Below the pieces are notes generated by a model. That model did no database searches and had not been told where the DNA came from. It worked only from the letters and a program-made list of their open reading frames with translations. This document shows positions 32,906-63,782 of a DNA stretch of 64,000 bases, one piece after another. The stretch is from the NCBI GenBank assembly GCA_016933535.1, contig JAFGAS010000072.1, positions 102,779-166,778 of the forward strand, written 5' to 3'. Position numbers and translations under genes: made by a program. Each line of letters opens with the position of its first letter. Within the stretch, counting starts at the first letter, position 1. This stretch comes from Candidatus Zymogenaceae bacterium (GTDB lineage Bacteria > Desulfobacterota > Zymogenia > Zymogenales > Zymogenaceae).

Positions 32906-33060
32906 CCCGGTGGCAATCGAAGCTGCGGTTCTCGAAAGAGAAGTGGGCCGCTCTTGACGATAATCTATTGACCTCATTGAATCTTCATTTCCCCGCACGA
33001 TCGTGGAAGGTTTCAGGATGGCCTGCAATTCCCGCGGATTTATAACATGTCCTGTAGCAC
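32906..33060. repeat. Degenerate tRNA-Arg attachment scar, copy 0 (oldest)
   Basis: CCCGGTGGCAATCGAAGCTGCG aligns with the tRNA 3' half at 56.9 kb (CCCGGCAGGAATTGAACCTGCG). Then CTCTTGACGATAATCTATTG is the same as at 56.9 kb apart from the first base. GATGGCC and AATTCCC lie 10 bp apart (33017, 33027), and TATAACAT and TGTAGCAC 12 bp apart (33041, 33053), as in the other copies. It is the most mutated copy and lies just left of the CHAT gene. Confidence 0.7.
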
Positions 33061-33091
33061 TTATCCGCGTTCGGGGCGCACGGGCCGCGCC

Positions 33092-35887
33092 CTACTCCCA
33101 ATGCCCGACCATCTCAAAGGCAGCCCAGTAAAAGGGGCTTTCGAAGCCCTTCTGGGTTTTCAGCCAAAGCTGGGCCCGGCGCAGCGCCTCGGGTTTGGTC
33201 ACGCCCTGCTTAAGGTTCCTGTAAAAATCGGCCATCAAGGCACCCGTCGAATCGTCGGCCACCTCCCACAGGGTTACCAGGAGCGACGGCGTCCCCGCAT
33301 AGATGAATCCGCGGGACAGCCCGATCAACTCGTCCCCATTGAGGACCTTGGACAGCCCCGTCTCACAGGCCGACAGCACCACCAGCGACGATCTGCCCAG
33401 GTCCAGCCCGAAAAGCTCCCAGACCGAGAGCATCCCGTCGTTGCTCTTGTCGGACGCCAGGTAAAGGCTCGAGAGAAGCGGATCATCTTCCCTGAACTTT
33501 CCGTGGCAGGCCAGGTGTATGACGGCGTATTCCTTGAACCTGTCTTTCCCGGTAGTCTCCTTCGCCCGATCCTGAAAGTAAGCATCCACGTTCCCCATGA
33601 TCTCGCCGATCGTTTCAACCTCACGCTCGGCAAACGGCAGCGGGTTATAGGCGGTCGTCGGGTTGCCAAAGGCGATGATACGGCCGGTCGGCTTTTTTTT
33701 CTTTTTAGTAACGAATCCGAGACTGCTGGCGCTCGGATCGACGATCAGCGTATGCGTATCGATCAGGTATTCCTTGCCGTTATAAAGGGCCGAAAAAGGA
33801 AGGTAGTGCAGCGTCCGGTGGGGGATGATGATCAGAGTCTTTTCCCCGGCGGACGTGAGGGCCGGGGTAATCAGGATGTCGTAAAGTGCTTGCGACTTTA
33901 TTAAGAAATCGTCCGTGTCCTTTTTCACGAGGGAATTGACGATGGCCTGCCGGAACTCGGTGATCTTCTTGCCCAGCTCGTCCCGATTCATCTTTACGGT
34001 AAAGACCGCCAAATCGTCTTTCGATAGGGAAAAAATGTAAACCATCTCTTCCGTGAGATAATACTCTATGACCCGCACGCCGGGGATCAACAACGATTGC
34101 ACCTCCCCGGATGTCAGGGGTTTCACGGAGACGAGAGAACCGAGCTCGGGATATCGTTTCTGTATCTCTTCGGTGAGGGCAACGTAGTTATCCTGGGCCT
34201 CTTTTATTTCCCGCGTCGTCTTTTCCCCCGTCGAGACGAGGGTAGTGAGATCGGAAAAGACGTTGCCCTTGTGGCCGAGCCTCTTAATCTCGTTTCTCAG
34301 CCGCTCTTCCCCGGCCACCAAACCCTGCGCATCCTTTTCCCTCACGATAAGGGTCCTGGTGCCGAGCAGGTCCAACAGGCTCCGCGACCTGCCGCGCTCC
34401 ATATACTCGAAAGCCTCCTGAGTCCGCCCCAATCCAACCAAGAGCTCAACGATCTCGTCATAGGCAAACGAGGCGCCCCCGAAGAAGGCCGATCTCAGGC
34501 TCTCCGCGTTGATATCGGCCCTGATCTTCTCGGCGACGTCAATGGCCGTCTTATAATACTCGACGGCATTTTCTGATTCACCGAGCGCCTTATGTGCGAA
34601 GCCGAGGTAGCCGGCGGCATACCCTATTTCCAGGTAGTTTCCCGTTTCGCGGTTTCTGGCGAGCGACCTCTCAAAAAAGGCGATCGCCTCTTTATACTGC
34701 CCCTTGCCGACGTAGAGCATCCCGAGATAGAGCGGGTCGATGATCTCCTGGAGCTTTGCCTTCTCGACGATGAACAGGACCTGGGCCGAGTAGCGTTTCG
34801 CCTGCTTAAAATCTTTCTTAGAGAAATAGACGAGAGCGAGGGCGGCGCGGGAGAAACCTTCACCGACGGGATTGTTAATCTCATGGAAAATATCGAGGGC
34901 ATCGGTGAGGTGGCGGATGGCTTCGTCCTCGTCACCGAGGGTACAGGCCGCCAGGGAAAACAGCACCATTGCTTCGTTGAGCCGGTCGCCAGTCTTGCGG
35001 TAATAGTCAAGCACCTGGTTCTTATAGGTGATGCCGCTTTTCACGTCGCCCGCCGTAATAAATGCGGTCCCCAGCCTATCGAGACACTTGACTTTTTCCT
35101 GGTCCGTAACGGCCGTTTTTTCCGCCTCACGGTAGACGTCGATTGCCTTTTCATATCGGGGAACCTTGAGATACCCGTCCCCCAAAAGGATCATAGCCGT
35201 GACCGTGCCCGGGGCATCACCGGTCTCCCGGTAATACCCGATCGCCTTTTCGGCCTGGATTATGGTGGAGTCCGGCAGATCCATACGGTGATAGAGTAAC
35301 GCCGCATCGTAGGAAAGCCGGGCCTTGAAATGCCTATCGGCCGACGCCTCGGCCATGGTGACGATATCCTGAATGCAGGAGAGGGCCTTTCCCCGGTCTC
35401 CCATCCTCAGATAGGTCTCGGCCATATCGATCCGGACGACCGACTCTCCTCTCGTGTTGCCTGTCTCCTTTTTGAGAGCCAACGCCTCCCCCAAGAAAGA
35501 AAGCGCTTCATCATATTGGCCCATTTTGAAATGTATCAGACCTATCATATGCAGGGTGTCTCCCAGGTCCGTCCAACCCTCGATTTGTCGAAAGACGTCG
35601 GCCGCCTCGGTATGATACAAGAGCGCGTCATTGAGCCGATCCATCTTTTCACACGTACGGCCCAGATCGGAAAGCGTGATCCCCTCTCCCCGTCTCAGCC
35701 CGATCTCCCGGTAGATTTCCAGCGCCTTTTCGTAGGCCTCGAAGGCCGCCTTGAACGTGCCGGTTCCATAGAGCTCAAATCCTTTCTTTGCATACGCATC
35801 GGCTTGTTCCCGTGTCCCCGCGGCGGCAGTGGTAAGAAGAAGGAACGAAACCGCAATCACCGCAAAAGGGATAATGGTCTTTTTCAT
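33092..35887 (-). CDS. Secreted TPR-CHAT protein (caspase-like protease domain)
   Basis: 931 aa from the ATG at 35887 (MKKTIIPFAVIAVSFLLLTT, a Sec signal peptide; AGAAAGG upstream; a start at 35914 would add 9 residues). Residues about 30-480 hold roughly 11 tetratricopeptide repeats. The C-terminus (about 620-931) is a CHAT domain with the catalytic His about 796 in HLACHG and Cys about 841 in LSACETG, as in HetF and separase-like peptidases. TPRs usually bind partner proteins and CHAT cleaves them. Its signal peptide places it outside the cytoplasm, unlike the CHAT effectors of known defence systems. It is alone between two attachment scars, with no gasdermin-like or effector partner beside it. 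Confidence 0.9.
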   Translation of the reverse strand: MKKTIIPFAVIAVSFLLLTTAAAGTREQADAYAKKGFELYGTGTFKAAFEAYEKALEIYREIGLRRGEGITLSDLGRTCEKMDRLNDALLYHTEAADVFRQIEGWTDLGDTLHMIGLIHFKMGQYDEALSFLGEALALKKETGNTRGESVVRIDMAETYLRMGDRGKALSCIQDIVTMAEASADRHFKARLSYDAALLYHRMDLPDSTIIQAEKAIGYYRETGDAPGTVTAMILLGDGYLKVPRYEKAIDVYREAEKTAVTDQEKVKCLDRLGTAFITAGDVKSGITYKNQVLDYYRKTGDRLNEAMVLFSLAACTLGDEDEAIRHLTDALDIFHEINNPVGEGFSRAALALVYFSKKDFKQAKRYSAQVLFIVEKAKLQEIIDPLYLGMLYVGKGQYKEAIAFFERSLARNRETGNYLEIGYAAGYLGFAHKALGESENAVEYYKTAIDVAEKIRADINAESLRSAFFGGASFAYDEIVELLVGLGRTQEAFEYMERGRSRSLLDLLGTRTLIVREKDAQGLVAGEERLRNEIKRLGHKGNVFSDLTTLVSTGEKTTREIKEAQDNYVALTEEIQKRYPELGSLVSVKPLTSGEVQSLLIPGVRVIEYYLTEEMVYIFSLSKDDLAVFTVKMNRDELGKKITEFRQAIVNSLVKKDTDDFLIKSQALYDILITPALTSAGEKTLIIIPHRTLHYLPFSALYNGKEYLIDTHTLIVDPSASSLGFVTKKKKKPTGRIIAFGNPTTAYNPLPFAEREVETIGEIMGNVDAYFQDRAKETTGKDRFKEYAVIHLACHGKFREDDPLLSSLYLASDKSNDGMLSVWELFGLDLGRSSLVVLSACETGLSKVLNGDELIGLSRGFIYAGTPSLLVTLWEVADDSTGALMADFYRNLKQGVTKPEALRRAQLWLKTQKGFESPFYWAAFEMVGHWE

Positions 35888-36115
35888 AATAATGCCTTTC
35901 TGATAGGTATTCATCCTCTGGACTAATACTAAAAGGGCTCTCTTGAGCAGACGTGAGGAATTTTCAGCGGAGTATTCGGAAAAAAGTTTGCGTTGGATTG
36001 TGGATGTGCCTCATTATAGCTAAGAATGGCTGTAATTTCAAAAACTTTTTGAGTTTTTTTATACGTACGGAGGTTATTCAAACGGATTGGCGGTCGTGTA
36101 TGGTATTAAAATCAT

Positions 36116-36265
36116 TGGCGCGCCCGGCAGGAATCGAACCTGCGACGCATTGATCGGAAGCAGCTTACCCTTGAGGGTGATGTACGGACATTACTATATT
36201 TTCGGTTATCTGGATGTCCCCGCAGCGCCCCACAATGCCCTGAAATGCCCCTGTTTCTGTAACAC
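36116..36265. repeat. tRNA-Arg attachment scar, copy 1
   Basis: On the minus strand the T arm and acceptor 3' strand of a tRNA are perfect (36146-36116, ending GCGCGCCA). The anticodon arm has diverged and no 5' half follows. Rightward come four 10-bp-phased repeats at 36214, 36224, 36234 and 36244 (consensus RATGCCC) and TGTAACAC at 36258. The same architecture recurs at 32.9, 46.3, 56.7, 56.9 and 63.6 kb. Confidence 0.75.
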
Positions 36266-36421
36266 TTTTTTATAGCGCGTTCGCGGAAAAGCACTACTCC
36301 ATTAATCAATACGCAGCATTAACAGCCGGCATTTTACCGGCGGCGCTTACTATTTTACATGGACTCGGAAAGGACGACGAGGCAACGCTCATAGTAAAAA
36401 TAACGAACCGGATTAATTCCC

Positions 36422-36512: not shown

Positions 36513-37307
36513 ATGAGCGTTCAATCCATTCGTAAAGCCATCGATATCCTCTCACTCTTTTCAATCACGAGGCCTCACTTGGGTATTACCGAGATCAGCA
36601 AGAGCATCGGTATGCCAAAGGCGACGGCCCACGGCATTGTGAAGACCCTCGTAGAGCAGGGATTCCTGATACAGGACGCGGAAAACAACAAATACAGTCT
36701 TGGCCTCAGGATCTACGAGTTGGGGATGATCCTTTCGGGGACCCTTAAGATAAATCTTGTCGGCCTGGGGCCGGCTCGTCGTCTCGCTCAGAATCGTTCC
36801 ACGATGGTTCGACTGGGGCTCTGGGATCGTGAGAGCGTATTTGTCACGATGAATCGCTTTCCCTCCTCCGATGTAACCCAGACCCAGTTTTTGGGACCGC
36901 GGATTCCCGCTCATTGTACCGCCCTTGGAAAGTCGATACTTGCGTTCCTCCCGAAGGAACAAATACGGGATTATCTCAAACACGCCGAGTTATCTGCCTA
37001 TACGCCTCGGACTATTGTCAGTAAGAAGGCCTTGCTCGATGAGCTGGAAGATATCGTCAGGATAGGCTACGCGACGGACAACCAGGAATATGTCTCGGGA
37101 CATTGCTGTATCGGTGCCCCCATCTATGATCGAATGGGAAACCCGATTGCCGCCGTCAGCCTTTCGGTACAACCCCCGGACCTTATCCGGAAACTCCCTT
37201 CTTCCCTCGTGGACGATCTGATAGAAATCTCCATCGAAATCTCCATGTCCATGGGGTATGTGCCCGGGACGGCTTCACGCGGTATAACGAGAAAGGCGGC
37301 GCCATGA
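36513..37307 (+). CDS. IclR-family transcriptional regulator
   Basis: 264 aa. The N-terminal winged helix reads SIRKAIDILSLFS, LGITEISKSIGMPKATAHGIVKTL and NNKYSLGLRIYELG (about residues 4-72). The C-terminal effector domain has CTALGKSILAFLP and the YVSGHCCIGAPIYD segment, both canonical. These proteins usually control catabolism of aromatic, sugar-acid or alcohol substrates. It is the first gene of the block between scars at 36.1 and 46.3 kb and reads toward the dehydrogenase/GRE/transketolase genes, its likely targets. Confidence 0.93.
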   Translation: MSVQSIRKAIDILSLFSITRPHLGITEISKSIGMPKATAHGIVKTLVEQGFLIQDAENNKYSLGLRIYELGMILSGTLKINLVGLGPARRLAQNRSTMVRLGLWDRESVFVTMNRFPSSDVTQTQFLGPRIPAHCTALGKSILAFLPKEQIRDYLKHAELSAYTPRTIVSKKALLDELEDIVRIGYATDNQEYVSGHCCIGAPIYDRMGNPIAAVSLSVQPPDLIRKLPSSLVDDLIEISIEISMSMGYVPGTASRGITRKAAP

Positions 37308-37447
37308 TGTCTGTCCTACGGATTGGATTGCCCCCTCTCGTCAAGTAATACTGGTACGCTATAAAGGAGACACACAACACAAACCCTTCAACCAGGTATA
37401 CTAATAGCGGTTCTCTTCAGGTTTGATTAAGCTGTTGGCTTTCCGCT

Positions 37448-37512
37448 CGTAGAGAGGCGAGAGTCACGGTGAGATGCTATGGCGCGATTCCAAACTAAAA
37501 ACGCTCTCTACG
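37448..37512. promoter_or_regulatory. Inverted repeat in the leader of the zinc alcohol dehydrogenase
   Basis: CGTAGAGAG (37448-37456) and CTCTCTACG (37504-37512) are perfect 9-bp arms 47 bp apart, just before the dehydrogenase start. They could form an RNA stem in the leader or bind a dimeric regulator. Function is not established. Confidence 0.3.
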
Positions 37513-37544
37513 AAACAATATAAAACACCTTCACGAGGTCCAAC

Positions 37545-38744
37545 ATGAAATCGATCTATTTTGACGTAAGTGTGCCGAAAATCCTAGCAACAAAGGCCCT
37601 TGCCCCCGCGTTGCCCTTCATCTATTACACGCCGCTCTCACCGGTTGGCTTTTCCGACATCCCCGAGCAGGAACTCCCCGGCAAGAACTGGGTGCGGGTA
37701 AAATCTCTGGCGACAGGGATTTGCGGGGCCGACATCGCGATGTTCTTCGTCAAAGCAAGTCCCGGGATATCGATCGCGGCGCTCCCCGGCGTCCCCCGGG
37801 CCTTTATGGGCCACGAGGTGGTGGGAACGGTAATTGAAAAGGGACCGGGCGTTACGGCTCTTGCCATAGGCGACCGGGTAATCCTGGAACGCTACCTCCC
37901 GTGCTGTTCTACCAAGGAGATCGCACCCCCCTGCGGGCCGTGCAAGGAGGGGAACTACACCCTCTGCGAAAACTTTTCGGAGGGGACGCTGCCTCCCAAC
38001 CTCGGTGCCGGCTTCTCGGAGCGATTCCTTGCCCACAAGACCCAGCTGGTCAAGGTACCCAAGGATATCACCGACGATCAGGCGGTGCTGGTGGAACCGA
38101 CGGCCGTTTCCCTCCACGCGGTGCTCAGCCGGCTGCCGAAAAGGGGCGAAAAGGTCCTTGTCATCGGGGCCGGGACCATCGGCCTGGGGGTCATTCAGAT
38201 AGCCAAGGCGCTGGGTAAGGACTTTACCCTCTATGCCCTCGAGAAGATCCCCTTCAAGAAGGAACTGGCAAAAAAATACGGTGCCGATCACGTGCTGGAA
38301 GGAGACCCCTACCGGGCCGTGGCAGAAGCCACGGGCGCAAAACTCTACCGCGGACCCCTTGGCAACAACACGACGCTGGGAGGGTTTGACCTGATCTACG
38401 ACTGCGTGGGCTACTCGGCTACCATCCACGACTCGCTCAGATGGCTCAAGGCAAAGGGCGAGTATATCATGATTGGAAACCAGCTCTCCCCGGTATCCTT
38501 TGACCAGACCCCCGTCTGGCAGCAGGAACTGACGATAAAGGGGATCAACGCCCACGGTTCCGAGACCTACCAGGGTAAAAAGACGAGCTCCTTTGCCCTG
38601 GCCATGGACCTTATCGGAAAAAAGAAGATCAGCGTCGACGGCCTCATCACCCATCGATTCCCCTTTGCGGACTACAAACAAGCCTTCAAACTCGCCAAGG
38701 AGAAATCGAGCGACGTAATAAAGGTCATGTTGAAGATATCGTAG
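37545..38744 (+). CDS. Zinc-dependent alcohol dehydrogenase (MDR superfamily)
   Basis: 399 aa. Catalytic zinc ligands are Cys in GICGADIA and His-Glu in FMGHEVVG. A structural-zinc-like loop follows (CCSTKEIAPPCGPCKEGNYTLC). The NAD loop is VLVIGAGTIGLGVIQIAKALG. These enzymes oxidise alcohols or polyols to ketones or aldehydes. A 34-residue N-terminal extension before the core is longer than usual. It precedes the SCP2-GRE gene by about 300 bp, and a second MDR dehydrogenase follows that GRE, so sequential oxidation around the GRE step is plausible. The substrate is unknown. Confidence 0.9.
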   Translation: MKSIYFDVSVPKILATKALAPALPFIYYTPLSPVGFSDIPEQELPGKNWVRVKSLATGICGADIAMFFVKASPGISIAALPGVPRAFMGHEVVGTVIEKGPGVTALAIGDRVILERYLPCCSTKEIAPPCGPCKEGNYTLCENFSEGTLPPNLGAGFSERFLAHKTQLVKVPKDITDDQAVLVEPTAVSLHAVLSRLPKRGEKVLVIGAGTIGLGVIQIAKALGKDFTLYALEKIPFKKELAKKYGADHVLEGDPYRAVAEATGAKLYRGPLGNNTTLGGFDLIYDCVGYSATIHDSLRWLKAKGEYIMIGNQLSPVSFDQTPVWQQELTIKGINAHGSETYQGKKTSSFALAMDLIGKKKISVDGLITHRFPFADYKQAFKLAKEKSSDVIKVMLKIS

Positions 38745-38786
38745 ACAAGGCGTCCGTCGGGTAAATGCTAACACCCAAGAAAGGAC

Positions 38787-38903
38787 ATGCCTGAAAAGAC
38801 GCAAAAGGACAATAACGGAGAAAAAGAGCCGGATGTAGGTTTAGGGTTCGGCATTTTTTGCCTCGTTTCCAAGGACTATAGAGGATACTCCTTGCGTCAA
38901 TAG
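38787..38903 (+). CDS. Possible small ORF (38 aa)
   Basis: A 38-codon frame (MPEKTQKDNNGEKE..., ending GYSLRQ) fills part of the 304-bp gap between the dehydrogenase and GRE-3. AAAGGA lies before its ATG but at only about 1 bp, too close for a good ribosome-binding site. I recognise no family. The hydrophilic start and hydrophobic middle are unremarkable. Confidence 0.2.
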   Translation: MPEKTQKDNNGEKEPDVGLGFGIFCLVSKDYRGYSLRQ

Positions 38904-38942
38904 CATGTATGGCGCTCAGCCGGGATACCGCCCGGCACGTTT

Positions 38943-38962
38943 CATCTGTTTCACGACAGATG
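38943..38962. promoter_or_regulatory. Inverted repeat upstream of GRE-3
   Basis: CATCTGT-TTCACG-ACAGATG has perfect 7-bp arms and lies 87 bp before the GRE-3 start. It could be an operator or a leader hairpin. It does not match the IclR-type sites at 36.4 kb. Confidence 0.35.
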
Positions 38963-39048
38963 GATTGGTACGAATAGATAACAGATAGAGCTGAGATAAG
39001 ACACTATCTATACGGCTTTTCCGTTCACTGTGACCGGGAGGAATCAAC

Positions 39049-42042
39049 ATGAACAGGAAGACATTCACTAATTCTATTGTACGCCTTCTATTTCTCCTCA
39101 TTGCGTTCCTTTTCAATTACATCCCGCCGATAAGAAAGCACATGCGATCGACCCAAGGCTGGATTAATTTTTCCGTCGGTTTCAGGACCGAGAACGATAG
39201 CGTAAATCAGGCGATCACCTTTAAGGATGGAAAGGTCTCGGTTACGAAGAAAATCCCGCGTAATATCGACGTAACGCTGATCTTCATTGATGACAAGACG
39301 CTCCTTGAGATGCTGAGAATAACGCCCAATGAGGTGATTAATCTCCTCCTGAAAAACAAGATGAGAACGGACGGCAACCTGACCTGTTTGAATCCCTTTA
39401 ATTATTATATCTCGCTGTTGTTCGGGAAAAAGCACAAGAAGATGCTCGGCAAACAGATACGAGCAGAACTCGCGGAAAATCGGCGGATCTCTCAAGAGGC
39501 TGATCCGGGCTGTCTCAACGAACTGGCCCGAAGGAAAAGGACTAAGATCAAGGGAGAACGAGTTGATAAGGGGGTATTGTATCTTGAAGACCCCTACCTG
39601 TCCGAGTATGAAATCGATGATTTTCCTCGTCTCGGAGAGTTTTTACGCCTCCACTTCAACACGAAGCCGGAGGTATGCCCCGAAAGGCCAAAGCTGTTGA
39701 CCGATTTCTTTGTAAAGAACGGTTTCACCCTGTCTCAAAACGGCGATAATGGAAAAAACGAGCTCCGCCAGGCACAGGCGTTCAAATACCTGATGGAGAA
39801 CAAGAAACCGATCATCGGAAAGAACGACCTTGTTGCCGGTACTTCGACGACAAAAGAAATCGGCGTAATCCTCTACCAAGACGCTCACGCGGCATTGTTA
39901 TGGGGAGAATTGAAATCGGCGCCCGATAGGCGGTTGAATCCCTATACGATCTCGGATGAAACGGTCAAGATACTCCATTCTCATGTCCTTCCCTACTGGA
40001 TGGATAAGAACTTTCGCGAATGGGTAAGAACAAAATATGGTAATCCTCTCAGCCAGCAATTGGACGAGCGTTTTGCGGTCTACTTTCTCTTTAAGGTGGC
40101 CGCCCTCTCTCACACGATCTTGGATTTCCCAAAACTCCTCAGGATAGGAATAAAGGGACTTATCAGGGAGATCAATGACGAGCTAAAGAACGACGCCACG
40201 GCGTCCCGGCAGAAAAAGGACACGCTGGGCGCTATGGAAATATGTCTTGCGGGGGTCGCGAGTTATGCAAAAAACTTGTCGAAACAGGCGGCGCAGCAAG
40301 CCGAAGAAGAAAGCGACCCAACAAGAAAGGCGGAACTCCGGCGGCTTTCAGAAATATGCAACCATGTCCCCGAAAATCCAACCCGTACGCTTGATGAGGC
40401 GATTAACGCAATATGGATCGGTTGGGTAGCACTCCATATGGAAAACACGAACGCGGGGCTTTCCCTCGGCAGGATGGATCAATGGCTCCAGCCCTATTTT
40501 GAAGCGGACATTAAGAAGCTGAAAACCAAAAAAGAGCAAACGGAATATATTGAGAGAGCTATTGAGCTTGTCGGCTGCTTCTACATGCGCTGCACCGATC
40601 ATCTCCCGTTGGTGCCGGATATCGGCAATTACCTTTTCGGGGGCAGTTCATCTGACCAGGCAATAACACTGGGAGGAATGACTCCCGACGGGAAAGACGC
40701 CGTGTGCGACATGACGTATATCTTTCTTAAAGTAACGGAACTACTGGGCATCCGGGACCCCAACGTGAACGCTCGCTTTACGCCGGGGCTCAACAGCGAT
40801 GCGTATCTCAAGCGGTTATGCGAGGTTAACCTGATCACCACCGCAACTCCCTCGATGCACAACGATCACGCGGTAATGAAGTCTTTGGAAGAGCTCAATT
40901 ATAGGCCCGAAGACCTCAGGGACTGGGCTGCAACCGGGTGCGTGGAACCGACGATCTCGGGAAAGCACATGGGGCACACCAACTGCATGATGATGAACAT
41001 GGTGGCGGCGCTGGAAATGGCGCTGAATAATGGGCGCCACCCCCTCATGAGATGGGACGTGGGTCCAAAAACCGGCATGATATATGATAATGGGACCAAC
41101 GGAGCCAACGGAGATTTCAAGACATTCGACGCCTTTTTCGATGCTTTCAAGACACAACTCAAATTTCTCATAGATCGGTCAGTTGAGTATAACAACATGC
41201 TCGGGGAGGCCCACAGCGTCATCCGTCCCACGCCGCTGTTGTCATCGCTCATCAGTGGGTGTATTACCGGCGGGAAAGACGCGACGAAGGGAGGCGCAAA
41301 ATATAATTCGTCCGGTTCGGCCTGTATCGGCTTGGCGGACGTGACTGATTCGTTGATGGTCATCAAGAAACTGGTGTATGACGAAAAGAAAATCACTTTT
41401 ACTAAGCTCAAAGAGGCCATTGACGGCAACTTTGAGGATAATCCCTCTCTGCACGCTACGGTGACCAAGAAAGTAAAGCTCTTTGGAAGCGGGAGCCGGG
41501 AGGCGGTGGCGATTGCAAACAACGTTACGAAATTTACCCATGATATATACTTTGCCCATAGGAATTTCAGGGGCGGTAGATACACAGCGGGGTTCTGGTC
41601 GATGGCAAACCATGTCGCATTTGGGACGCTGGCCGGGGCACTGCCATCCGGAAGACATGCGGGAAAAGCCTTCACCCCCGGCCTTACCCCTTCGCCCAAC
41701 GCGAGCAACAATATCCTTGACAATATCCGGGACGTCGCTCAGCTCGATCCGAAAAAGATGAATAACAACATCGCCTTTAATGTAAAGATAGTCCCCGCGA
41801 TGACCCATAGTCACGAGAAGACCGTTGACATCATGCATTCACTGGTAAAGACCTATTTTGAGCTCGGCGGAATGCAGATGCAGCTCAATGTAGTGACCTC
41901 GGACATGCTCAAAGATGCAATGTATCATCCTGAGGACTACCAGAATCTCCTGGTTCGGATCTCCGGATACAATGCCTATTTTGTAACGCTCAATAAAGAT
42001 ATGCAGCAAGAACTTATCGAGCGCGCGGAGTATGGAATATAG
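39049..42042 (+). CDS. SCP2-domain/glycyl radical enzyme fusion (GRE-3)
   Basis: 997 aa, about 140 longer than GRE-1 and GRE-2. The N-terminus has a hydrophobic stretch (about 11-26, RLLFLLIAFLFNYIPP) and an SCP2-like domain (about 40-126: AITFKDGKVSV, IDVTLIFIDDKTLLEML, KMRTDGNLTCL). The PFL domain begins near 170 (LEDPYLSEYEIDDFPRL). The thiyl cysteine is about 631 in TGCVEPT with the general-base-type Glu about 633 retained; the glycyl loop is RISGYNAYF with Gly about 973. GGGAGG precedes the ATG. No activase lies in this block; the nearest is at 1.7-2.6 kb. SCP2 suggests a lipophilic substrate or membrane association, but the reaction is unknown. Confidence 0.9.
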   Translation: MNRKTFTNSIVRLLFLLIAFLFNYIPPIRKHMRSTQGWINFSVGFRTENDSVNQAITFKDGKVSVTKKIPRNIDVTLIFIDDKTLLEMLRITPNEVINLLLKNKMRTDGNLTCLNPFNYYISLLFGKKHKKMLGKQIRAELAENRRISQEADPGCLNELARRKRTKIKGERVDKGVLYLEDPYLSEYEIDDFPRLGEFLRLHFNTKPEVCPERPKLLTDFFVKNGFTLSQNGDNGKNELRQAQAFKYLMENKKPIIGKNDLVAGTSTTKEIGVILYQDAHAALLWGELKSAPDRRLNPYTISDETVKILHSHVLPYWMDKNFREWVRTKYGNPLSQQLDERFAVYFLFKVAALSHTILDFPKLLRIGIKGLIREINDELKNDATASRQKKDTLGAMEICLAGVASYAKNLSKQAAQQAEEESDPTRKAELRRLSEICNHVPENPTRTLDEAINAIWIGWVALHMENTNAGLSLGRMDQWLQPYFEADIKKLKTKKEQTEYIERAIELVGCFYMRCTDHLPLVPDIGNYLFGGSSSDQAITLGGMTPDGKDAVCDMTYIFLKVTELLGIRDPNVNARFTPGLNSDAYLKRLCEVNLITTATPSMHNDHAVMKSLEELNYRPEDLRDWAATGCVEPTISGKHMGHTNCMMMNMVAALEMALNNGRHPLMRWDVGPKTGMIYDNGTNGANGDFKTFDAFFDAFKTQLKFLIDRSVEYNNMLGEAHSVIRPTPLLSSLISGCITGGKDATKGGAKYNSSGSACIGLADVTDSLMVIKKLVYDEKKITFTKLKEAIDGNFEDNPSLHATVTKKVKLFGSGSREAVAIANNVTKFTHDIYFAHRNFRGGRYTAGFWSMANHVAFGTLAGALPSGRHAGKAFTPGLTPSPNASNNILDNIRDVAQLDPKKMNNNIAFNVKIVPAMTHSHEKTVDIMHSLVKTYFELGGMQMQLNVVTSDMLKDAMYHPEDYQNLLVRISGYNAYFVTLNKDMQQELIERAEYGI

Positions 42043-57562: not shown

Positions 57563-57616
57563 AGCAACCCCCTCTCTTATCGTTCTTCTTGGTTACGGTA
57601 TGCCGTTTGAAGTCTA

Positions 57617-58393
57617 TTATTTCCCAGAGAACCATGGAATCAAGACACTTGTCCGTCGTTTATATTCTTCAAAACCAGGGGTCTTCGCCATAAGTCGCTC
57701 AGTCATTGGAATCCCTGAGACGAAAACAATCATAAGTGTAATAGCTAGCGGGCCGACGAAACCGATCCACCCAGAGGGGACCGACAGCGCGATGATGAAT
57801 ATGCCCCACCACATTGTGATCTCCCCGAAATAGTTCGGGTGTCTCGTATAGCGCCAGAGTCCCCGATCCATGATGGTTCCCCGATTCTTTGGATTTGCCA
57901 GGAATTGGTCAAGCTGATAATCTCCCACGGACTCGAAGATGAACCCTGTTATCCAGATAAGAAGACCACACGCGTCCAGTATATTCAGGTTCCCGCCGCT
58001 CGTGCTGTTGATGATGAGAACGGGGCTGATGTTGACTAAAAGGATCGCCCCCTGGAGCAGGAAGACCTGGAGGTAGCTTCTCAGGATAAATAAACGGCCC
58101 CACTCTTCCCGCCATTTTCGATAACGCGGATCCTCCCCTCTGCCCCGGTTCCGACGAAAGATCCTTATCGATAGTCTGCTTCCCCAGATCAGGATGAGGA
58201 TGCAGGCAAGGAGCTGCCGCGGATAAAAATCACCGACAATCCACAGGGTTGACCAGGCAACGATGACAAACCCGAGCCCCCATGCGATATCGGCAATGCT
58301 GTTATCCTTGCGAATCAGAGCAATGATGAAGAGTCCCGTCATGTAGCCGAAGATGATGATCGCCGCGATCAAGAACGTATTTACTAGTTCCAT
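57617..58393 (-). CDS. DUF1295 / steroid 5-alpha-reductase-like membrane protein
   Basis: 258 aa, about six membrane spans. The C-terminal RGLWRYTRHPNYFGEITMWWG is the conserved motif shared with isoprenylcysteine methyltransferases and sterol reductases, which bind NADPH or SAM near that loop. Related bacterial proteins are thought to reduce double bonds in lipids or steroids; the substrate here is unknown. GGGGAGG precedes the ATG. It lies between the DUF2177 and acyltransferase genes. Confidence 0.88.
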   Translation of the reverse strand: MELVNTFLIAAIIIFGYMTGLFIIALIRKDNSIADIAWGLGFVIVAWSTLWIVGDFYPRQLLACILILIWGSRLSIRIFRRNRGRGEDPRYRKWREEWGRLFILRSYLQVFLLQGAILLVNISPVLIINSTSGGNLNILDACGLLIWITGFIFESVGDYQLDQFLANPKNRGTIMDRGLWRYTRHPNYFGEITMWWGIFIIALSVPSGWIGFVGPLAITLMIVFVSGIPMTERLMAKTPGFEEYKRRTSVLIPWFSGK

Positions 58394-58480
58394 TGAAACA
58401 CCTCCCCTTCCTTGTTTCCAACAAAGGCTTATTTCACAGGCGTAAGAACTCTTTCTCGTTGATACGATAAACGACCGAAT

Positions 58481-59254
58481 TTACCCGCGAGACAGGTTTT
58501 TCTCGAATCCCGACTTTATTATGTCCCTTATTCGTTTTACCGTGTCATCGATCCCGTCCCGGTCCTTGTGAGAAACTGACACCGGCCGATGGATTTTCAT
58601 AATGGCGCGACCGGGGAACAGCTTGAGGGTTCCGGGCGGAAGGATGGATCTCGTTCCCGAAATGGATACCGGGAGGATCGGCATACCCAGGTCCGTCGCC
58701 AGGATAAAAGCTCCCTTCTTGAAAAGACCGATTTCCCCCGTCTTGCTCCTCGTCCCCTCGGGTAAAATGACAACGGATGTCCCCTCCACAAGCTTTTTCT
58801 TGGCCGCCTCCAGGGAAGCGTAGGCGGCCTTTGGGCTGCTCCGATCTATGTATATGTTTCCGCCCATCTTTCCGGCAAATCCGAATACCGGGACTTTTCG
58901 TAGTTCCTTTTTCATTACCCATTTGATGTCAATGCCAAGCCAGCCGTAGAGAACAAAGATATCATATGAGCTTTGATGATTTGAGACAACAACGTATGAC
59001 TGTCCCTTCTTGATGTTCTGTCTGCCCAGGACGGTTACGCGCATCGGCGTAATATAGCTGTTAAATCGGGCCCACCAGACACCCGTCGTACGATGGGCGA
59101 CCTTGTCACCACAGAGGATTACGACGATGACGCCGAGAAAGACGAAAAAAGTAGTGGAGAGTACCAGAAAAGGGACGACGATCAACCACACGTAGATTTG
59201 ATATGTCCAGAAAACGATTAGATTTTCGCGGCGAAAGAATCTTTCTGAAACCAT
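58481..59254 (-). CDS. 1-acyl-sn-glycerol-3-phosphate acyltransferase (PlsC family)
   Basis: 257 aa. It transfers an acyl chain to lysophosphatidic acid in phospholipid synthesis. The catalytic NHQSSYD (HX4D), the GGNIYIDRSS block and the VVILPEGTRSKTG glycerol-phosphate site are all intact. One or two N-terminal membrane helices (about 14-50) anchor it. The ribosome-binding site is weak. In this accessory block it may be a second copy acting on a special lipid. Neighbouring DUF1295 supports a lipid theme. Confidence 0.9.
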   Translation of the reverse strand: MVSERFFRRENLIVFWTYQIYVWLIVVPFLVLSTTFFVFLGVIVVILCGDKVAHRTTGVWWARFNSYITPMRVTVLGRQNIKKGQSYVVVSNHQSSYDIFVLYGWLGIDIKWVMKKELRKVPVFGFAGKMGGNIYIDRSSPKAAYASLEAAKKKLVEGTSVVILPEGTRSKTGEIGLFKKGAFILATDLGMPILPVSISGTRSILPPGTLKLFPGRAIMKIHRPVSVSHKDRDGIDDTVKRIRDIIKSGFEKNLSRG

Positions 59255-59369
59255 TATATCAAACTCAACTAATAAATATTTCTATTTCCCATGGATACTT
59301 ACTAAAAGTCAATTGCCGAGTAGTAGCTGTTATTCAACGGAATAGGGCCATCATTCACTATATTGCATG

Positions 59370-60329
59370 TCACCGCCGGGGGCAGGGCGGTTGCAAAGCT
59401 GCAGCCCCCAGCGGGCGGGGATTGAGATAGGTTTGCTCTTTCAGATATGGCTGATCGTACTTCCTGACATAGTGATTCAGGAGAGTAACCGGGACAATCA
59501 GCGGGATGAACCCCCTACGGTATTCATCAATGACCTCCACGAGTTCCTGTTTCTCGTCAGTGGCGAGGTTCTTCTTGAAGTAGCCCATCACGTGGTGTAA
59601 GACGTTGGTGTGTTTAGCCGTCGAGGGCTTGAGCGCCATTGCCCCCATCAGGAGCTTCTCATATTGTCCGATGAGTTCACTTTTTGATAGTTCTGCCGAG
59701 TGCGCCACAAGGTATCCCATCTGCTTAAGATGCTTTGGGCTGTGCGCCATGAGAAGGAGTTTGTTCCTGGCGTGAAAATCAACGAGACTCCCGATCAGTT
59801 TCTTGTCTTCCACGATTTCACTATAACGCCGGTAAGTGTAGATACGGTCAATGAAGTCCTCCCGCAGAATCGGGTCGTAAAGCCGGCCGTCCTCTTCGGC
59901 GGGCGTCAGGGGAAAGTGCTCCATGAAGATACGGGCGAAAACACCAACACCCGATTTGCGAGGCACCCCGTCGTGGTCATATACCTTAACACGCTCCATC
60001 CCACTTGATGGAGAGTCGCTTTTAAAAATAAACCCGCAGAGGTTCTCTTTCTCGAGCTCGCGCACCCGGTTTCTGGCCCAGGTTTCCATGCGGTCCGTAT
60101 GGTCGACGCCAGTATTGCTCGTCACCAGGCGTGGTTTTTTTGGGTCACCCGTCAGTCGTAATGCTTCTCGCGGAATACCAAAACCGCATTCCACCTCCGG
60201 GCATACGGGCACGTACTTTACATACTTGCCCAAGGTATCCCGCAGGAAGCGGTCAAGCGAATGCCCGCCGTTATAGCGGACATTCTCACCGAGAAGACAG
60301 GTGCTTATGCCGATGCGGATCTGCTGCAT
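59370..60329 (-). CDS. DUF523-DUF1722 fusion protein (YbgA-like)
   Basis: 319 aa. The N-terminal DUF523 part (about 1-150) has ISTCLLGENVRYNGGH, VCPEVECGFGIPRE and the conserved Lys/Ser segment FKSDSPSSG with possible metal-binding cysteines. The C-terminal DUF1722 part (about 170-300) has LVDFHARNKLLLMAHSPKH and LNHYVRKYDQPYLKEQTYLNP. The two-domain form is widespread and often lies near photolyase and lipocalin genes. Its activity is unknown to me. The start at 60329 has a weak ribosome-binding site. Confidence 0.88.
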   Translation of the reverse strand: MQQIRIGISTCLLGENVRYNGGHSLDRFLRDTLGKYVKYVPVCPEVECGFGIPREALRLTGDPKKPRLVTSNTGVDHTDRMETWARNRVRELEKENLCGFIFKSDSPSSGMERVKVYDHDGVPRKSGVGVFARIFMEHFPLTPAEEDGRLYDPILREDFIDRIYTYRRYSEIVEDKKLIGSLVDFHARNKLLLMAHSPKHLKQMGYLVAHSAELSKSELIGQYEKLLMGAMALKPSTAKHTNVLHHVMGYFKKNLATDEKQELVEVIDEYRRGFIPLIVPVTLLNHYVRKYDQPYLKEQTYLNPRPLGAAALQPPCPRR

Positions 60330-60348
60330 GTTTTATACTTAAATACCT

Positions 60349-60732
60349 TCAGCTTCTCACGCCAATCAACGGGAGAACCTTGTCCAGGTGAAAAAAGATG
60401 AGATATTTGGGACCCGTCCTGTATTTCCCCTCCACTTCAGGGTTTTTCTTTCTGCGAATTTGTTCAATTAGCGGGCTGTCCTTCTCTTCACGTATCTTGG
60501 TAAGGTATAATCGCCGGCCTTCATTCCGGTTCGCCTCTTTAAAGAGATAAACCGCATGGGGGTTTGATTGGAGATTTGCATGGGTCAATTTCTCGGCAGC
60601 GATAAAGGCAACCGTTTCATCATCAAGAAAATGCGGTCTACCGTAGATAGCGGCATCGACACTTCCGTCGGCATCCGCAGTGGCAAGGACCCCGACTCCT
60701 TCTGTCTCCTCGAAATAATTACTTAGCTTCAT
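60349..60732 (-). CDS. Pyridoxamine 5'-phosphate oxidase-like (split-barrel FMN-binding) protein
   Basis: 127 aa. The VLATADADGSVDAAIYGRPHFLDDETVAFIA block and LQSNPHAVYLFKE are typical of small split-barrel flavoproteins that bind FMN or F420. It probably reduces a small molecule; it is not the vitamin B6 enzyme itself, which is longer. AGAGGAGAAGCGCCC precedes the ATG. It lies 19 bp upstream of the DUF523-DUF1722 gene and is likely cotranscribed. Confidence 0.85.
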   Translation of the reverse strand: MKLSNYFEETEGVGVLATADADGSVDAAIYGRPHFLDDETVAFIAAEKLTHANLQSNPHAVYLFKEANRNEGRRLYLTKIREEKDSPLIEQIRRKKNPEVEGKYRTGPKYLIFFHLDKVLPLIGVRS

Positions 60733-60840
60733 GGGCGCTTCTCCTCTATTTTAGCATATATTTTTTCGATAAGAAGCTTTTTTCTCACGGGTTTCGAAAA
60801 GATCATGAAATGTAAGCACAACAATCATGTGATTGTGAAC

Positions 60841-61005
60841 TGCCCCCGAGAACTGTACCAGTGTTTAAGTTAGTCCATAGGCATAAGTTTCTCTTTGAGC
60901 TCCTGAAGACCGAGGATGTATTGTTTCAGGAGCCGGTGGCTTGTAGCCAAGATGACTGTGCGACCTGATCGTGTTGTACTCCCGCCGCCTCTCTGTCAAG
61001 GCATC
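60841..61005 (-). mobile_element. IS3-family remnant A: transposase C-terminus and right end
   Basis: On the minus strand the frame reads RRREYNTIRSHSHLGYKPPAPE and continues to a TAA at 60865-60867, the C-terminus of an IS3-group OrfB (DDE transposase; normally REYNTIRPHSSLGYRPP). It is followed by ACACTGGTACAGTTCTCGGGGGCA, the probable terminal inverted repeat. The rest of the element is missing. Two further remnants lie at 61.3 and 63.3 kb in the same orientation. Confidence 0.85.
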
Positions 61006-61039
61006 AGAGCCCTATGTCCGCGTGCGGGGGTCTCACCTG

Positions 61040-61240
61040 CTATTTCAATAACCTCCATATGAATCCAACCAGGAATATGATCGCCCCGGAACCGGAAACG
61101 ATTACTCCAATCCAAAGGAAGTCAAGAACGAAAACGAATATGCTAATGAAACACAAAAGGCTACCGATTTCCATCAGTACGGTGCTGGTTTTGTGCGGCA
61201 GCTTTTTTACTGCATTTGGTTGTTTACTTCGTTTAGCCAT
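61040..61240 (-). CDS. Small two-span membrane protein
   Basis: 66 aa from the ATG at 61240; the frame extends to a TTG 24 codons upstream, inside IS-derived sequence. After a basic start (MAKRSKQPNAVKKLP) it has two hydrophobic helices (about 21-40 and 42-62) and ends WRLLK. I recognise no family. It lies between two IS remnants, so it may be a passenger or a chance frame, but the topology is coherent. Confidence 0.4.
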   Translation of the reverse strand: MAKRSKQPNAVKKLPHKTSTVLMEIGSLLCFISIFVFVLDFLWIGVIVSGSGAIIFLVGFIWRLLK

Positions 61241-61297
61241 AGACTGAAACCCATAAAGAGGATGGAAAGATATCTTGTGTTGACGCCTAACGTACTG

Positions 61298-61352
61298 TCC
61301 TGCCCCCGTCAACGATACCAGTGTTTAAGCTAGTGCATAGGCATGCGTTTCT
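61298..61352 (-). mobile_element. IS3-family remnant B: right end only
   Basis: CCTGCCCCCGTCAACGATACCAGTGTTTAAGC matches the end sequences of remnants A and C with few changes. Only about 20 bp of degenerate coding sequence remains, including a shifted stop. Same orientation as A and C. Confidence 0.7.
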
Positions 61353-61414
61353 TTTGAGACCCAGAGGAACGGGGAATATGGTCTCTTGTGTAGAACCATA
61401 CCTGGCTTGCCTGG

Positions 61415-61942
61415 TCATGAATTATCTCCCCTGCTTTGAAGTCGCACAGCCAGCCAGACCAGAATCGGACTCATAATCCCCCAGCCCACTGCCAGGATAG
61501 CGATCCCGAGGACATCCGGCACTGACAGAGTAGCCCCCAACAGGGCACCGCTATAGTAAGCACAGCTCCCTCCGACGGCACCGAAAACAGCCGCGATTAA
61601 GTAGCGTCCCTTGAGCCATGCCAGTGAGACATTGATGGTAGCTGCAAAATTGAGCCAGAGAGATATCATCCAGGGCTGACTGAACGGCTCGGGCAAAATA
61701 TGTCCGCGCGGAGTGACTATTCCAGCGGCCGACAGCGCCGTATCGAAGCAGAAGCCGAGGGTTCCGGCCGCAAACAACAAAATCAGCTCACCGCGGCGGT
61801 TATCTATGAGCACTAAATGAAGCGCAAGCGTTAGCGCCACCGCCAGCGGCCCATACCAATCGTTCCCCCTTGCAGCCCCCAGCACAGCTATGAACCAAGA
61901 CGCCTGAAAGAGAACAATGTTGATGAGCTTCCTTCCCATCAT
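61415..61942 (-). CDS. DUF2878 membrane protein
   Basis: 175 aa, with about five to six membrane spans. LINIVLFQASWFIAVLGAARG, GTLGFCFDTALSAAGIVTP and PWMISLWLNFAATINVSLAWL are conserved in DUF2878. The role is unknown; members travel with lipocalin, DUF1295 and DUF523 genes. Two adjacent ATGs (61942, 61939) are possible starts after CGGGGC, the second better spaced. It lies 18 bp downstream of the lipocalin gene and is probably cotranscribed. Confidence 0.83.
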   Translation of the reverse strand: MMGRKLINIVLFQASWFIAVLGAARGNDWYGPLAVALTLALHLVLIDNRRGELILLFAAGTLGFCFDTALSAAGIVTPRGHILPEPFSQPWMISLWLNFAATINVSLAWLKGRYLIAAVFGAVGGSCAYYSGALLGATLSVPDVLGIAILAVGWGIMSPILVWLAVRLQSRGDNS

Positions 61943-61959
61943 GCCCCGAGTCTTAAAGA

Positions 61960-62496
61960 TTAAGGCCAATCTTGGGGAACCTTGATCAGTTTCGATGTGT
62001 CATATCCCTGTGCTTTAATCATATCCACGATACGAGAATAGTCCGCTTCGGGAATTTCAGGCTTTCGGGCCATAATCCATACGTAGTCCCGTTTGTTGCG
62101 AGCCACAACGGTCAGAGTATAGTCGTCAGTCAAATAGGTTATCAGATATTCGGCCTTGAGCGGCCAAATAAAACGCATTCCCCATGTAGAGTTGGTAGTT
62201 GTATTGACAATGAAGCCGCGTGGTTTATAGGTCTTGAGCGGGCCGTCGAAAGCCCCCTTCCGGAAGGTGAATGTTGTGGCGATTGTGCCGTCTGCATCAA
62301 GCCGATATGATTCGACTGCATTGTATGCTCCGATCTCAAGAGAGGTCGGGATGCAGGCGATAACGTACCAGTCCCCCATGAAGCGCTGGATATTAACATA
62401 GTCGACTGTTTTAAGGGGCGGGTGAGTTGCGCCGCACGCGGACAGAGACATTGTCAGCCCCAACATAGCCGTGAGAACAACAAAAATCTTACACAT
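61960..62496 (-). CDS. Lipocalin family lipoprotein (Blc-like), copy 1
   Basis: 178 aa. The signal peptide ends in a lipobox (MSLSAC, Cys about 21), so it is a lipoprotein. The mature barrel has the lipocalin N-terminal motif MGDWYVIACIP and the Blc-type segments FRKGAFDGP, YLITYLTDDYTLTVVARNKRDYVWIMARKP. Blc proteins bind lysophospholipids or fatty acids in the outer membrane. GAGGAG precedes the ATG. A second, more typical copy lies 182 bp upstream. Confidence 0.92.
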   Translation of the reverse strand: MCKIFVVLTAMLGLTMSLSACGATHPPLKTVDYVNIQRFMGDWYVIACIPTSLEIGAYNAVESYRLDADGTIATTFTFRKGAFDGPLKTYKPRGFIVNTTTNSTWGMRFIWPLKAEYLITYLTDDYTLTVVARNKRDYVWIMARKPEIPEADYSRIVDMIKAQGYDTSKLIKVPQDWP

Positions 62497-62678
62497 TTCT
62501 TAGTTCTCCTCGTGACTTTGTTTGCTACTTAAACGCCGCACCTTACTCAAAAATTCGTATTTAGCGGCTCATTTACCCCTCCTTCGTCTATCCTTATACT
62601 TCTCTCCCAATCATTTTGTTTCAGCTTGTTTTTCTTACTTTTCCAATCAATTCAACAGTTCAATTCATAATAAAGGAT

Positions 62679-63194
62679 TTATTCATCGTGCTGTACGTAG
62701 ATTAGTTCGTCTGTATCGAATCCCCGCGAGGCGGCTTTATCAACCAGACGTTTCTTTAAATCATCGGTGAGTCGTGGGCTTCGTGCCAAAAGCCATAGAT
62801 AAGACTTATTTGGGCCGCATACCAGCGCATAAGAATAATTCTCACGATCCAGATCAAAGACAACATATGATCCATAAAATGGGCCGAAAAAAGAAACTTT
62901 CAGAAAGCCCTGATCTTTACGATCAACGAAATACCCCTTGCCTTCAACCTCTTTCCACTTGTTTTCTTTTTCAGAATAACCTCGATTCACAACCCGTAAA
63001 CCGCCATCGGACCGTAGGCTATACTCAGCACTAACCGACTTGAGCCCCCGTTCAAAGGAATGATCAAGCCGAGCTATTTCGTACCACTTTCCCAGATACC
63101 GCTCGATATTGAAATTATCAACAGGTGTTGTATTTTCCGGCACATTGATGCAACCTGCTAATAATAAAGCAAAGATGGTAAGCATTTTTTTCAT
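62679..63194 (-). CDS. blc: Lipocalin family lipoprotein (Blc-like), copy 2
   Basis: 171 aa from the ATG at 63194 (MKKMLTIFALLLAGC, lipobox Cys about 15; GAAAGGA upstream). A start at 63215 lacks a ribosome-binding site. The motif LGKWYEIARLDHSFERGL is classic Blc, then FFGPFYGSYVVFDLDRENYSYALVCGPNKSYLWLLAR. It binds lipids at the outer membrane, probably for membrane repair or storage under stress. It is only distantly similar to copy 1, so an old duplication or separate acquisition is likely. Confidence 0.93.
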   Translation of the reverse strand: MKKMLTIFALLLAGCINVPENTTPVDNFNIERYLGKWYEIARLDHSFERGLKSVSAEYSLRSDGGLRVVNRGYSEKENKWKEVEGKGYFVDRKDQGFLKVSFFGPFYGSYVVFDLDRENYSYALVCGPNKSYLWLLARSPRLTDDLKKRLVDKAASRGFDTDELIYVQHDE

Positions 63195-63276
63195 TTTAGA
63201 TTTGTCCTTTCTCATTACAATCAGGTAAATATGCCTTAATATACCTGAAAAAGTCGGGTTTAAAAGAAGGAAGTAT

Positions 63277-63453
63277 TGACCTGCCCCCGAGAACTGTACC
63301 AGTGTTTAAGTTAGTCCATAAGTATAAGTTTCTCTTTGAGCTCCTGAAGACCGGGGAAGTATAGTTTCAGGAGTCGGGGGATTGTAACCGAGAGAACTGC
63401 GCGGCCTGATCGTGTTATACTCCCTCCGCCACTTCTCTGTCAGAACTTTCACT
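63277..63453 (-). mobile_element. IS3-family remnant C: transposase C-terminus and right end
   Basis: The minus strand reads VKVLTEKWRREYNTIRPRSSL and GYNPPTPET, ending at a TAA at 63306-63308, followed by ACACTGGTACAGTTCTCGGGGGCAGGTCA. It is the longest of the three remnants and lacks the catalytic DDE part. It lies 136 bp left of attachment scar copy 4. Confidence 0.87.
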
Positions 63454-63588
63454 TATACCAGTGTATCAAAGCTTTTATGATTAAGCAAATCGCTTTTCAG
63501 GAATTGCCTTGCCCTCCTTCCCGAGGCCATTCTACCAATAATCCTAACTCTTAACATGGACTCGTTTTTGGGGGGCAGGTCATCATTT

Positions 63589-63782
63589 TGGCGCGCCCGG
63601 CAGGAATCGAACCTGCGACCCACGGATTAGAAGTCCGATATTTTAGGTATGGTAGAGCTGGGTAATTATTGATCTTTTCCAATCATATCAAATAGTTAGG
63701 TGAAATTTACCTATACCGGATTATACCGAAATATACCGGTATATACCGGTTTTTTCAAAAAAAAGTGACACAAAAGTGACAC
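63589..63782. repeat. tRNA-Arg(TCT) attachment scar, copy 4 (best preserved)
   Basis: The minus strand carries GGACTTCTAATCCGTGGG, then the T arm and acceptor strand to GCGCGCCA: the 3' half of a tRNA-Arg with anticodon TCT, without a 5' half. To the right TATACCG recurs exactly every 10 bp (63712, 63722, 63732, 63742), and GTGACAC lies at 63765 and 63776. The layout equals the other copies but with different repeat words, suggesting a related integrase of other specificity. Confidence 0.82.

What the first reader, a model, noticed from the sequence alone, without database searches (positions are those of the whole stretch)
32906..63782. Stack of tRNA-Arg attachment scars separating five gene blocks
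The same composite (tRNA-Arg 3' half on the minus strand, about 60 bp, phased repeats, paired TGTAACAC-type repeats) occurs near 32.9, 36.1, 46.3, 56.7/56.9 and 63.6 kb, always in one orientation. The blocks between are functionally unrelated: CHAT protein; GRE/transketolase set; ABC/zinc-ribbon set; lipid/lipocalin set. Integration into a tRNA 3' end leaves a 3' fragment at the far side, so each scar would be the left end of an element that entered a tRNA-Arg to the right of the window. New arrivals would push older ones left. Decay is strongest at 32.9 kb and least at 63.6 kb, as this model predicts. No integrase survives in the window.
Basis: partly seen in the sequence, partly recalled or inferred. 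Interest (0 to 1): 0.85.

Follow-up and report, generated by a model that had tools for sequence, protein, structure and literature searches.

The report
Islands stacked at one tRNA gene
A stretch of an uncultured bacterium's genome holds five copies of the 3' half of one tRNA gene with unrelated gene sets between them, each copy likely left by a separate mobile island that inserted at that tRNA gene, so that metabolic gene sets would have piled up side by side.

Summary
In detail: five one-way copies of the tRNA-Arg(TCT) 3' half lie at 32.9, 36.1, 46.3, 56.9 and 63.6 kb; 56.7 kb is an element's right end, not a scar. The contig ends at base 64000. The one intact tRNA-Arg(TCT) I found is on contig C49; contig C60 holds three more scars, one decayed. 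Contig order is not shown. The scar composite is an attachment-site arm: tRNA fragment, spacer, 10-bp phased repeats, paired 11-12-bp repeats, in two sequence types, A (TGTAACAC) and B (GTGACAC). The same arms lie beside tyrosine integrases elsewhere: type A at tRNA-Ala in this genome, type B at tRNA-Arg(ACG) in a sister. Two of three same-family genomes have an integrase beside their own tRNA-Arg(TCT). Serial site-specific accretion is therefore well supported. Decay is only roughly graded and arrival order is unproven. Integrase relics do survive: two elements with different cargo share a right end that runs into the same C-terminal integrase stump, so they may have moved on a borrowed integrase. 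Closest known cases are cis-mobilizable element tandems and the Dehalococcoides ssrA islands. New member of a known kind, with unusually well-resolved attachment-site anatomy.

The parts
32906..33062 (-). Scar J1: decayed tRNA-Arg(TCT) 3' half plus decayed type A arm
   Evidence: 70% to the J4 composite; tRNA part 32/48; phasing not above shuffles
33092..35914 (-). Block 1: TPR/CHAT-domain protein, 940 aa
   Evidence: Pfam CHAT 8.6e-66
36115..36285 (-). Scar J2: tRNA-Arg 3' half plus partly decayed type A arm
   Evidence: tRNA part 40/46; 72% to J4; lag 10, 0/100 shuffles
36513..45193 (+). Block 2 cargo: IclR regulator, two zinc alcohol dehydrogenases, glycyl-radical enzyme, split transketolase
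   Evidence: Pfam
46307..46441 (-). Scar J3: decayed tRNA-Arg 3' half plus type A arm with two TGTAACA repeats
   Evidence: tRNA part 35/47
46782..56228 (+). Block 3 cargo: AIM24, solute-binding protein, permease and ATPase, beta-propeller, zinc-ribbon proteins
   Evidence: Pfam
56543..56650 (-). C-terminal stump of a tyrosine integrase, related to the C48:7804-8454 ORF
   Evidence: tblastn 56% over 36 aa, E 2.6e-5; also E 1.7e-4
56693..56880 (+). Right end of the block 3 element: 10-bp phased repeats (56746-56787), TGTAACAC-type repeats (about 56810-56838), hairpin (about 56845-56872), then the tRNA 3' end
   Evidence: Same segment ends the C60 J7-J8 element, 160/188 identical in its main part; TRF; only these two copies in four genomes
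56881..57046 (-). Scar J4: tRNA-Arg 3' half plus intact type A arm
   Evidence: 44/46; TRF pair at 57021-57046; 88% to the C48 arm at tRNA-Ala
57155..63215 (-). Block 4 cargo: DUF2177, DUF1295, acyltransferase, thiouracil desulfurase/DUF1722, PNPOx-like, DUF2878, two lipocalins
   Evidence: Pfam; DUF1295 and DUF2177 85% and 86% identical in G002
63277..63582 (.). IS-like remnant with TGACCTGCCCCC at one end and its inverse at the other, occupying the right end of block 4
   Evidence: Related repeats at window 60836 and 61292 and on C10; IS identity not tested
63585..63786 (-). Scar J5: perfect tRNA-Arg 3' half plus intact type B arm (four 10-bp units, two AAAAGTGACAC)
   Evidence: 46/46; TRF; 90% to J8 on C60

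Best explanation
The region is likely a pile of at least five genomic islands that inserted one after another into the 3' half of the tRNA-Arg(TCT) gene by tyrosine-integrase site-specific recombination, each predicted to have restored the tRNA and to have left the displaced 3' fragment at its left end. Shown: the tRNA fragments, the type A and type B arms beside them, the same arms beside integrases at other tRNA genes in this genome and its sisters, and no integrase domain found on the stack contigs. Inferred: crossover at the anticodon region (where the tRNA match stops), integrase binding to the paired 11-12-bp repeats, a directionality factor binding the 10-bp phased repeats, and accretion with newer islands nearer the intact tRNA. 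With no integrase of their own, the islands would now move only with one supplied by another element.
For: Fragments and arms in the window. Same type A arm beside a tRNA-Ala(GGC) fragment on C48, whose intact tRNA-Ala has a 376-aa-or-longer integrase ORF followed by a TGTAACAC pair. Type B arms at the 3' end of integrases beside tRNA-Arg(ACG) in G002 and tRNA-Arg(TCT) in G001. G002: integrase, about 10 kb, then a tRNA-Arg(TCT) scar and a truncated type B integrase. tRNA match stops at nt 31 (type A) or 28 (type B) at tRNA-Arg(TCT), and at nt 31 for tRNA-Ala. Phased 10-bp repeats in left ends of four arm families. One cargo pair more alike between genera than six neighbouring proteins at the tRNA-Pro locus.
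Against: Contig ends at base 64000 and links to the intact tRNA on C49 are not shown. Decay not monotonic; J6 is decayed beside perfect scars. Of five elements, only block 3 shows a matched type A right end in the window. Block 2 dehydrogenases are 71% identical to adjacent G001 genes with no scar found in the 19 kb fetched, which is ordinary divergence. No relative with an empty site was found.
Confidence: 0.85

Rival explanations
1. A special case of the accretion model: some islands (J3-J4 and J7-J8) had already lost their integrase before they inserted, and were moved in trans by an integrase that reads the same type A arms, such as the one on C48.
For: Both have type A arms at both ends, different cargo, and the same right-end segment running into an integrase stump that begins at the same residue (155, 154; alignment). 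J7 and J8 tRNA copies are perfect (46/46), so the J7-J8 insertion looks young while its integrase is only a stump. A type A integrase ORF is present in the same genome.
Against: The stump parts themselves are only 64/128 identical, so they may have been cut separately or come from different integrases. The C48 integrase's own target is tRNA-Ala, not tRNA-Arg. The stump is of another integrase type than the type A one.
Confidence: 0.25
2. The islands accreted elsewhere and arrived as one composite block, moved in a single step.
For: Composite transfer of tandems is described for other elements (PMC5704250, passages).
Against: Scars differ widely in decay, 32/48 to 46/46, and block GC runs from 0.483 to 0.575, so the blocks do not look of one age or origin; neither excludes it.
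Confidence: 0.08
3. The copies are local duplications of a tRNA pseudogene and its flank, not integration scars.
For: Type A composites resemble one another.
Against: The same arms occur at tRNA-Ala, tRNA-Pro and other tRNA genes beside integrases, each with that tRNA's own fragment, and there are two unrelated arm types at the same tRNA fragment.
Confidence: 0.03
4. An integron-like cassette array.
For: Several gene sets delimited by similar sites.
Against: The sites are tRNA fragments with arm repeats; blocks are multi-gene operons of 3-10 kb; only four PF00589 genes were found in the genome, none on C69, C60 or C49. attC structure was not tested.
Confidence: 0.02

Closest known systems
Cis-mobilizable elements (CIMEs) and tandem accretion (PMC5704250, passages read)
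   Same: Elements with att sites but no integration or transfer genes, lying in tandem at a target gene, explained by decay plus insertion of a new element at the attR that holds the target's end.
   Different: Here at least eight fragments of one tRNA in the assembly, two arm types in the same stack, metabolic cargo, and no ICE or IME ancestor shown.
Dehalococcoides ssrA genomic islands (PMC3146451, passages and section 10 read)
   Same: Many tandem islands bounded by repeats of one RNA gene's 3' end; 15 islands without integration modules; metabolic cargo.
   Different: Those use a serine recombinase and tmRNA; here tyrosine-integrase type arms and tRNA-Arg(TCT).
Additive flexible island fGI-2 of Methylophilaceae (PMC10872708, passages read)
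   Same: Repeats of a tRNA's 3' end marking an island of variable, partly metabolic content.
   Different: 20-nt tRNA-Lys repeats there; 46-49 nt here, with phased and arm repeats resolved.
Attachment site of ICEMlSymR7A with RdfS (PMC11963761, passages read)
   Same: Several integrase arm-type sites in attP plus a directionality factor that binds one subunit per 10 bp.
   Different: RdfS sites showed no consensus; here the 10-bp units repeat clearly. Binding here is inference only.

Membership tests
Cis-mobilizable element (CIME) tandem | Related att sequences at both ends of an element | tested here: met
   Met for J3-J4 and for J7-J8 on C60 (type A left, type A right end). Not seen for blocks 1, 2 and 4, whose right ends show no clear arms.
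Cis-mobilizable element (CIME) tandem | No integration or transfer genes inside | tested here: met
   No PF00589 match on C69, C60 or C49; no integrase, relaxase or secretion family among 24 window ORFs scanned.
Cis-mobilizable element (CIME) tandem | Derived by loss from an ICE or IME | tested here: inconclusive
   Integrase stumps at two right ends; no conjugation or mobilisation ancestor identified.
Cis-mobilizable element (CIME) tandem | Can be mobilised together with a neighbouring element | not testable with these tools
   Needs an excision or transfer experiment.
Integrative and mobilizable or conjugative element (IME/ICE) | Encodes its own integrase | tested here: not met
   None in the stack, only relics.
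Tycheposon | tRNA-targeting element with tyrosine recombinase and cargo (as in PMC10872708 passages; otherwise recalled) | tested here: not met
   tRNA site and cargo present, recombinase absent from the stack.
Phage satellite (such as PICI) | Integrase plus packaging or replication genes | tested here: not met
   Not among 24 window ORFs. The G002 element at tRNA-Arg(TCT) does have a terminase ATPase domain, CHC2 zinc finger and integrase.
Integron cassette array | attC sites and IntI | not tested
   IntI would appear as PF00589; none on the stack contigs. attC not searched.

The most novel reading that the evidence does not exclude
The stack is the landing ground of a lineage of integrase-less metabolic islands that keep a full attachment code (10-bp phased directionality sites and paired arm sites at both ends, with a fossil integrase stump) and move in trans on integrases of co-resident elements, so that one tRNA-Arg gene works as an open docking port for metabolic operons.
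Probability: 0.25. Interest if true: 0.65.

Novelty: new member of a known kind. Interest (0 to 1): 0.48.

Why it matters
In one locus it shows how a little-studied bacterial lineage would gain metabolic gene sets: repeated docking at one tRNA gene, with two attachment codes in the same stack. Arms, phased repeats and an intact candidate integrase for type A are all in hand, so movement of integrase-less islands on a borrowed integrase becomes a simple two-plasmid test.

Tried and rejected
Local duplication, integron cassettes and one-step arrival were considered and rated low (see rivals). Viral origin: three arm patterns gave no exact match in viral contigs, the type B integrase no confirmed relative, and the type A alignment two relatives at 22-27%. 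The one scan of genome contigs with four type A-related integrases found four distant relatives, 27-30% identical. Protein search with the C48 integrase: 145 proteins, 120 listed; the close ones are mostly short environmental contigs. Empty-site test: proteins on the 5' side of C49's tRNA had only weak matches near tRNA-Arg(TCT) in G001 and G002, so synteny could not be used. Contig joining by end overlap failed. Decay as a clock: rank correlation of scar identity with position is 0.9 for five scars (worked by hand), weak for n = 5, and J6 breaks it if C60 lies to the right. Rfam over 32-64 kb at E up to 1 gave two sub-threshold matches, tRNA at J5 and ohsC. The phasing test used single-base shuffles and took the best window and lag; many of the 16 ends are homologous and stand for about four independent families. 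PHROGs places the integrases in broad families 1 and 216 only.

Papers: PMC5704250, PMC10872708 and PMC11963761, passages only; PMC3146451, passages and section 10; the rest seen only in search listings. I make no claim that this stack is unpublished.
Full report
What is there. The window is bases 102779-166778 of contig C69 (166,778 bases) of a 2.94-Mb, 86-contig assembly, 89% complete. An integrase of a sister genome is recorded as from a Deltaproteobacteria bacterium. The contig ends at window base 64000. Five fragments of the tRNA-Arg(TCT) 3' half occur in one orientation: J1 32906, J2 36116, J3 46310, J4 56882, J5 63589. Contig C60 (15 kb, read in reverse) has J6 (decayed), J7 and J8, and C49 has an intact gene. 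That is eight fragments and one intact gene found in the assembly.

Anatomy of a scar. Beside each well-preserved fragment, on the element side, stand a spacer, 10-bp phased repeats and a pair of 11-12-bp repeats. Type A (J1-J4, J7) has GACGATAA...TGACATCATTGTATTTTCAAT, units like CCCTGGAATG, and TTTTGTAACACT twice. Type B (J5, J6, J8) has AGGTATGGTAGAGCTGGG, units like TATACCGGAA, and AAAAGTGACAC twice; J8 keeps only one such repeat, and J1, J2 and J6 are partly eroded. J6 and J7 are 259 bp apart, so the element between them is little more than joined ends. The tRNA match stops at the anticodon region: nt 31-76 for type A (J4, J7) and 28-76 for type B (J5, J8) at tRNA-Arg(TCT), 31-76 at tRNA-Ala(GGC) on C48, 31-78 at tRNA-Pro(TGG) in G002 and G003, 30-78 at tRNA-Arg(ACG) in G002.

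The arms belong to integrase elements. In this genome a tRNA-Ala(GGC) fragment with type A arms (C48:1487-1653) pairs with an intact tRNA-Ala at C48:47573-47648, beside which lies an integrase ORF followed by a TGTAACAC pair and a hairpin. That 46-kb interval also holds restriction-modification, HerA-like, dynamin-like and enolase genes and may be more than one element. C85 has an integrase about 50% identical next to tRNA-Pro(GGG), with a repeat pair of its own, and a Pro fragment 7.4 kb away. A search of 148 genomes, this one included, found matches to the arms in 5: this genome, its three same-family relatives (in G001 a 25-nt match only) and one distant genome (32 nt). Integrases close to the C48 one (E <= 1e-40) were found in 3 of 148: this genome, G002 and G003. 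Type B arms overlap or follow the end of an integrase at tRNA-Arg(ACG) in G002 and at tRNA-Arg(TCT) in G001, where the contig cuts the gene. G002's tRNA-Arg(TCT) carries an element of about 10 kb with integrase, CHC2 zinc finger, AAA protein, terminase ATPase domain and SocA-like antitoxin, then a tRNA-Arg(TCT) scar and a truncated type B integrase: a small stack in the same tRNA.

Phasing. Lag 10 was the best of lags 8-14 in 12 of 16 left ends; of these 12, 10 beat all 100 shuffles, one was reached by 1/100 and one by 10/100. Of the other four, J4's best lag was 12 (its arm pair, 0/100), and J1, J3 and J6 did not exceed shuffles. Copies differ by exactly one 10-bp unit among type A left ends and between the two right ends. 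A factor binding one subunit per 10 bp is known for RdfS (PMC11963761). Small HTH_17 readings stand beside the type B integrase of G002:C90 (26.9 bits, just under the cut-off of 27) and about 0.5 kb from a type A-like integrase in G003 whose frame has one stop (28.6 bits). None was found beside the C48 integrase. That such proteins bind the 10-bp units is inference.

Right ends and relics. Element J3-J4 ends at 56693-56880 with phased repeats, arms and a hairpin; element J7-J8 on C60 ends with the same segment (160/188 identical in its main part), and both run into an integrase C-terminal stump beginning at the same residue, beyond which the cargo differs. This right end was found only in these two places in four genomes. 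The stump resembles a third integrase type (217-aa reading, C48:7804-8454), a relic of which also sits beside tRNA-Ala in G001. The stump parts are only 64/128 identical, so a shared loss before insertion is plausible but not proven. Block 4's right end is occupied by an IS-like remnant.

Cargo movement. DUF1295 and DUF2177 of block 4 are 85% and 86% identical to G002 genes about 3 kb from a type B tRNA-Arg(ACG) scar, against 57-75% for six flanking protein pieces at the shared tRNA-Pro(GGG) locus. The rest of block 4 had no such close match. Against a general rule, the block 2 dehydrogenases are 71% identical to adjacent G001 genes with no scar found in 19 kb around them, and the C60 J7-J8 CoA ligase has a 70%-identical DNA match in G002 with no clear scar found in the 15 kb fetched. 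GC by block is 0.548, 0.539, 0.575 and 0.483, against 0.582 to the left.

Verdict. Serial site-specific accretion at tRNA-Arg(TCT) is well supported; arrival order and physical linkage to the intact gene are not shown. It is a known kind, closest to cis-mobilizable tandems and the Dehalococcoides ssrA islands (PMC5704250, PMC3146451). What is fresh is an attachment-site layout shared by four arm families and the hint of borrowed integrases.

Noticed in passing
window 60836-60998, 61292-61385, 63277-63442; C10:35265-35430 and 38284-38463: Dispersed repeat of about 160 bp with TGACCTGCCCCC at its edge, probably remnants of an insertion sequence; further copies on C57 and in G002 and G003.
   Followed up: partly
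L024 (C15) and L090 (G001:C18): Near-identical starts of what looks like the same oxidoreductase gene lie beside tRNA-Arg(TCG) in this genome and beside tRNA-Ala(GGC) plus an integrase relic in G001: possible shared cargo at different tRNAs.
   Followed up: no
L065:18923 to L066:9329 (G002:C86): Element of about 10 kb at tRNA-Arg(TCT) with integrase, terminase ATPase domain, CHC2 zinc finger and SocA-like antitoxin, like a phage satellite.
   Followed up: partly
C48:1487-47648 (L034-L036): Interval between a tRNA-Ala fragment and the intact tRNA-Ala with type I restriction-modification, HerA-like, dynamin-like, kinase/VWA/PP2C and an enolase gene.
   Followed up: partly
window 5203-6597 and 6912-8306: Two tandem 464-aa ORFs on the minus strand, DNA 90% identical over at least 300 bp.
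   Followed up: no
window 45172-45247: Weak ohsC-like RNA match (32.8 bits, gathering 50) over an imperfect palindrome, 80% over 45 bp.
   Followed up: no
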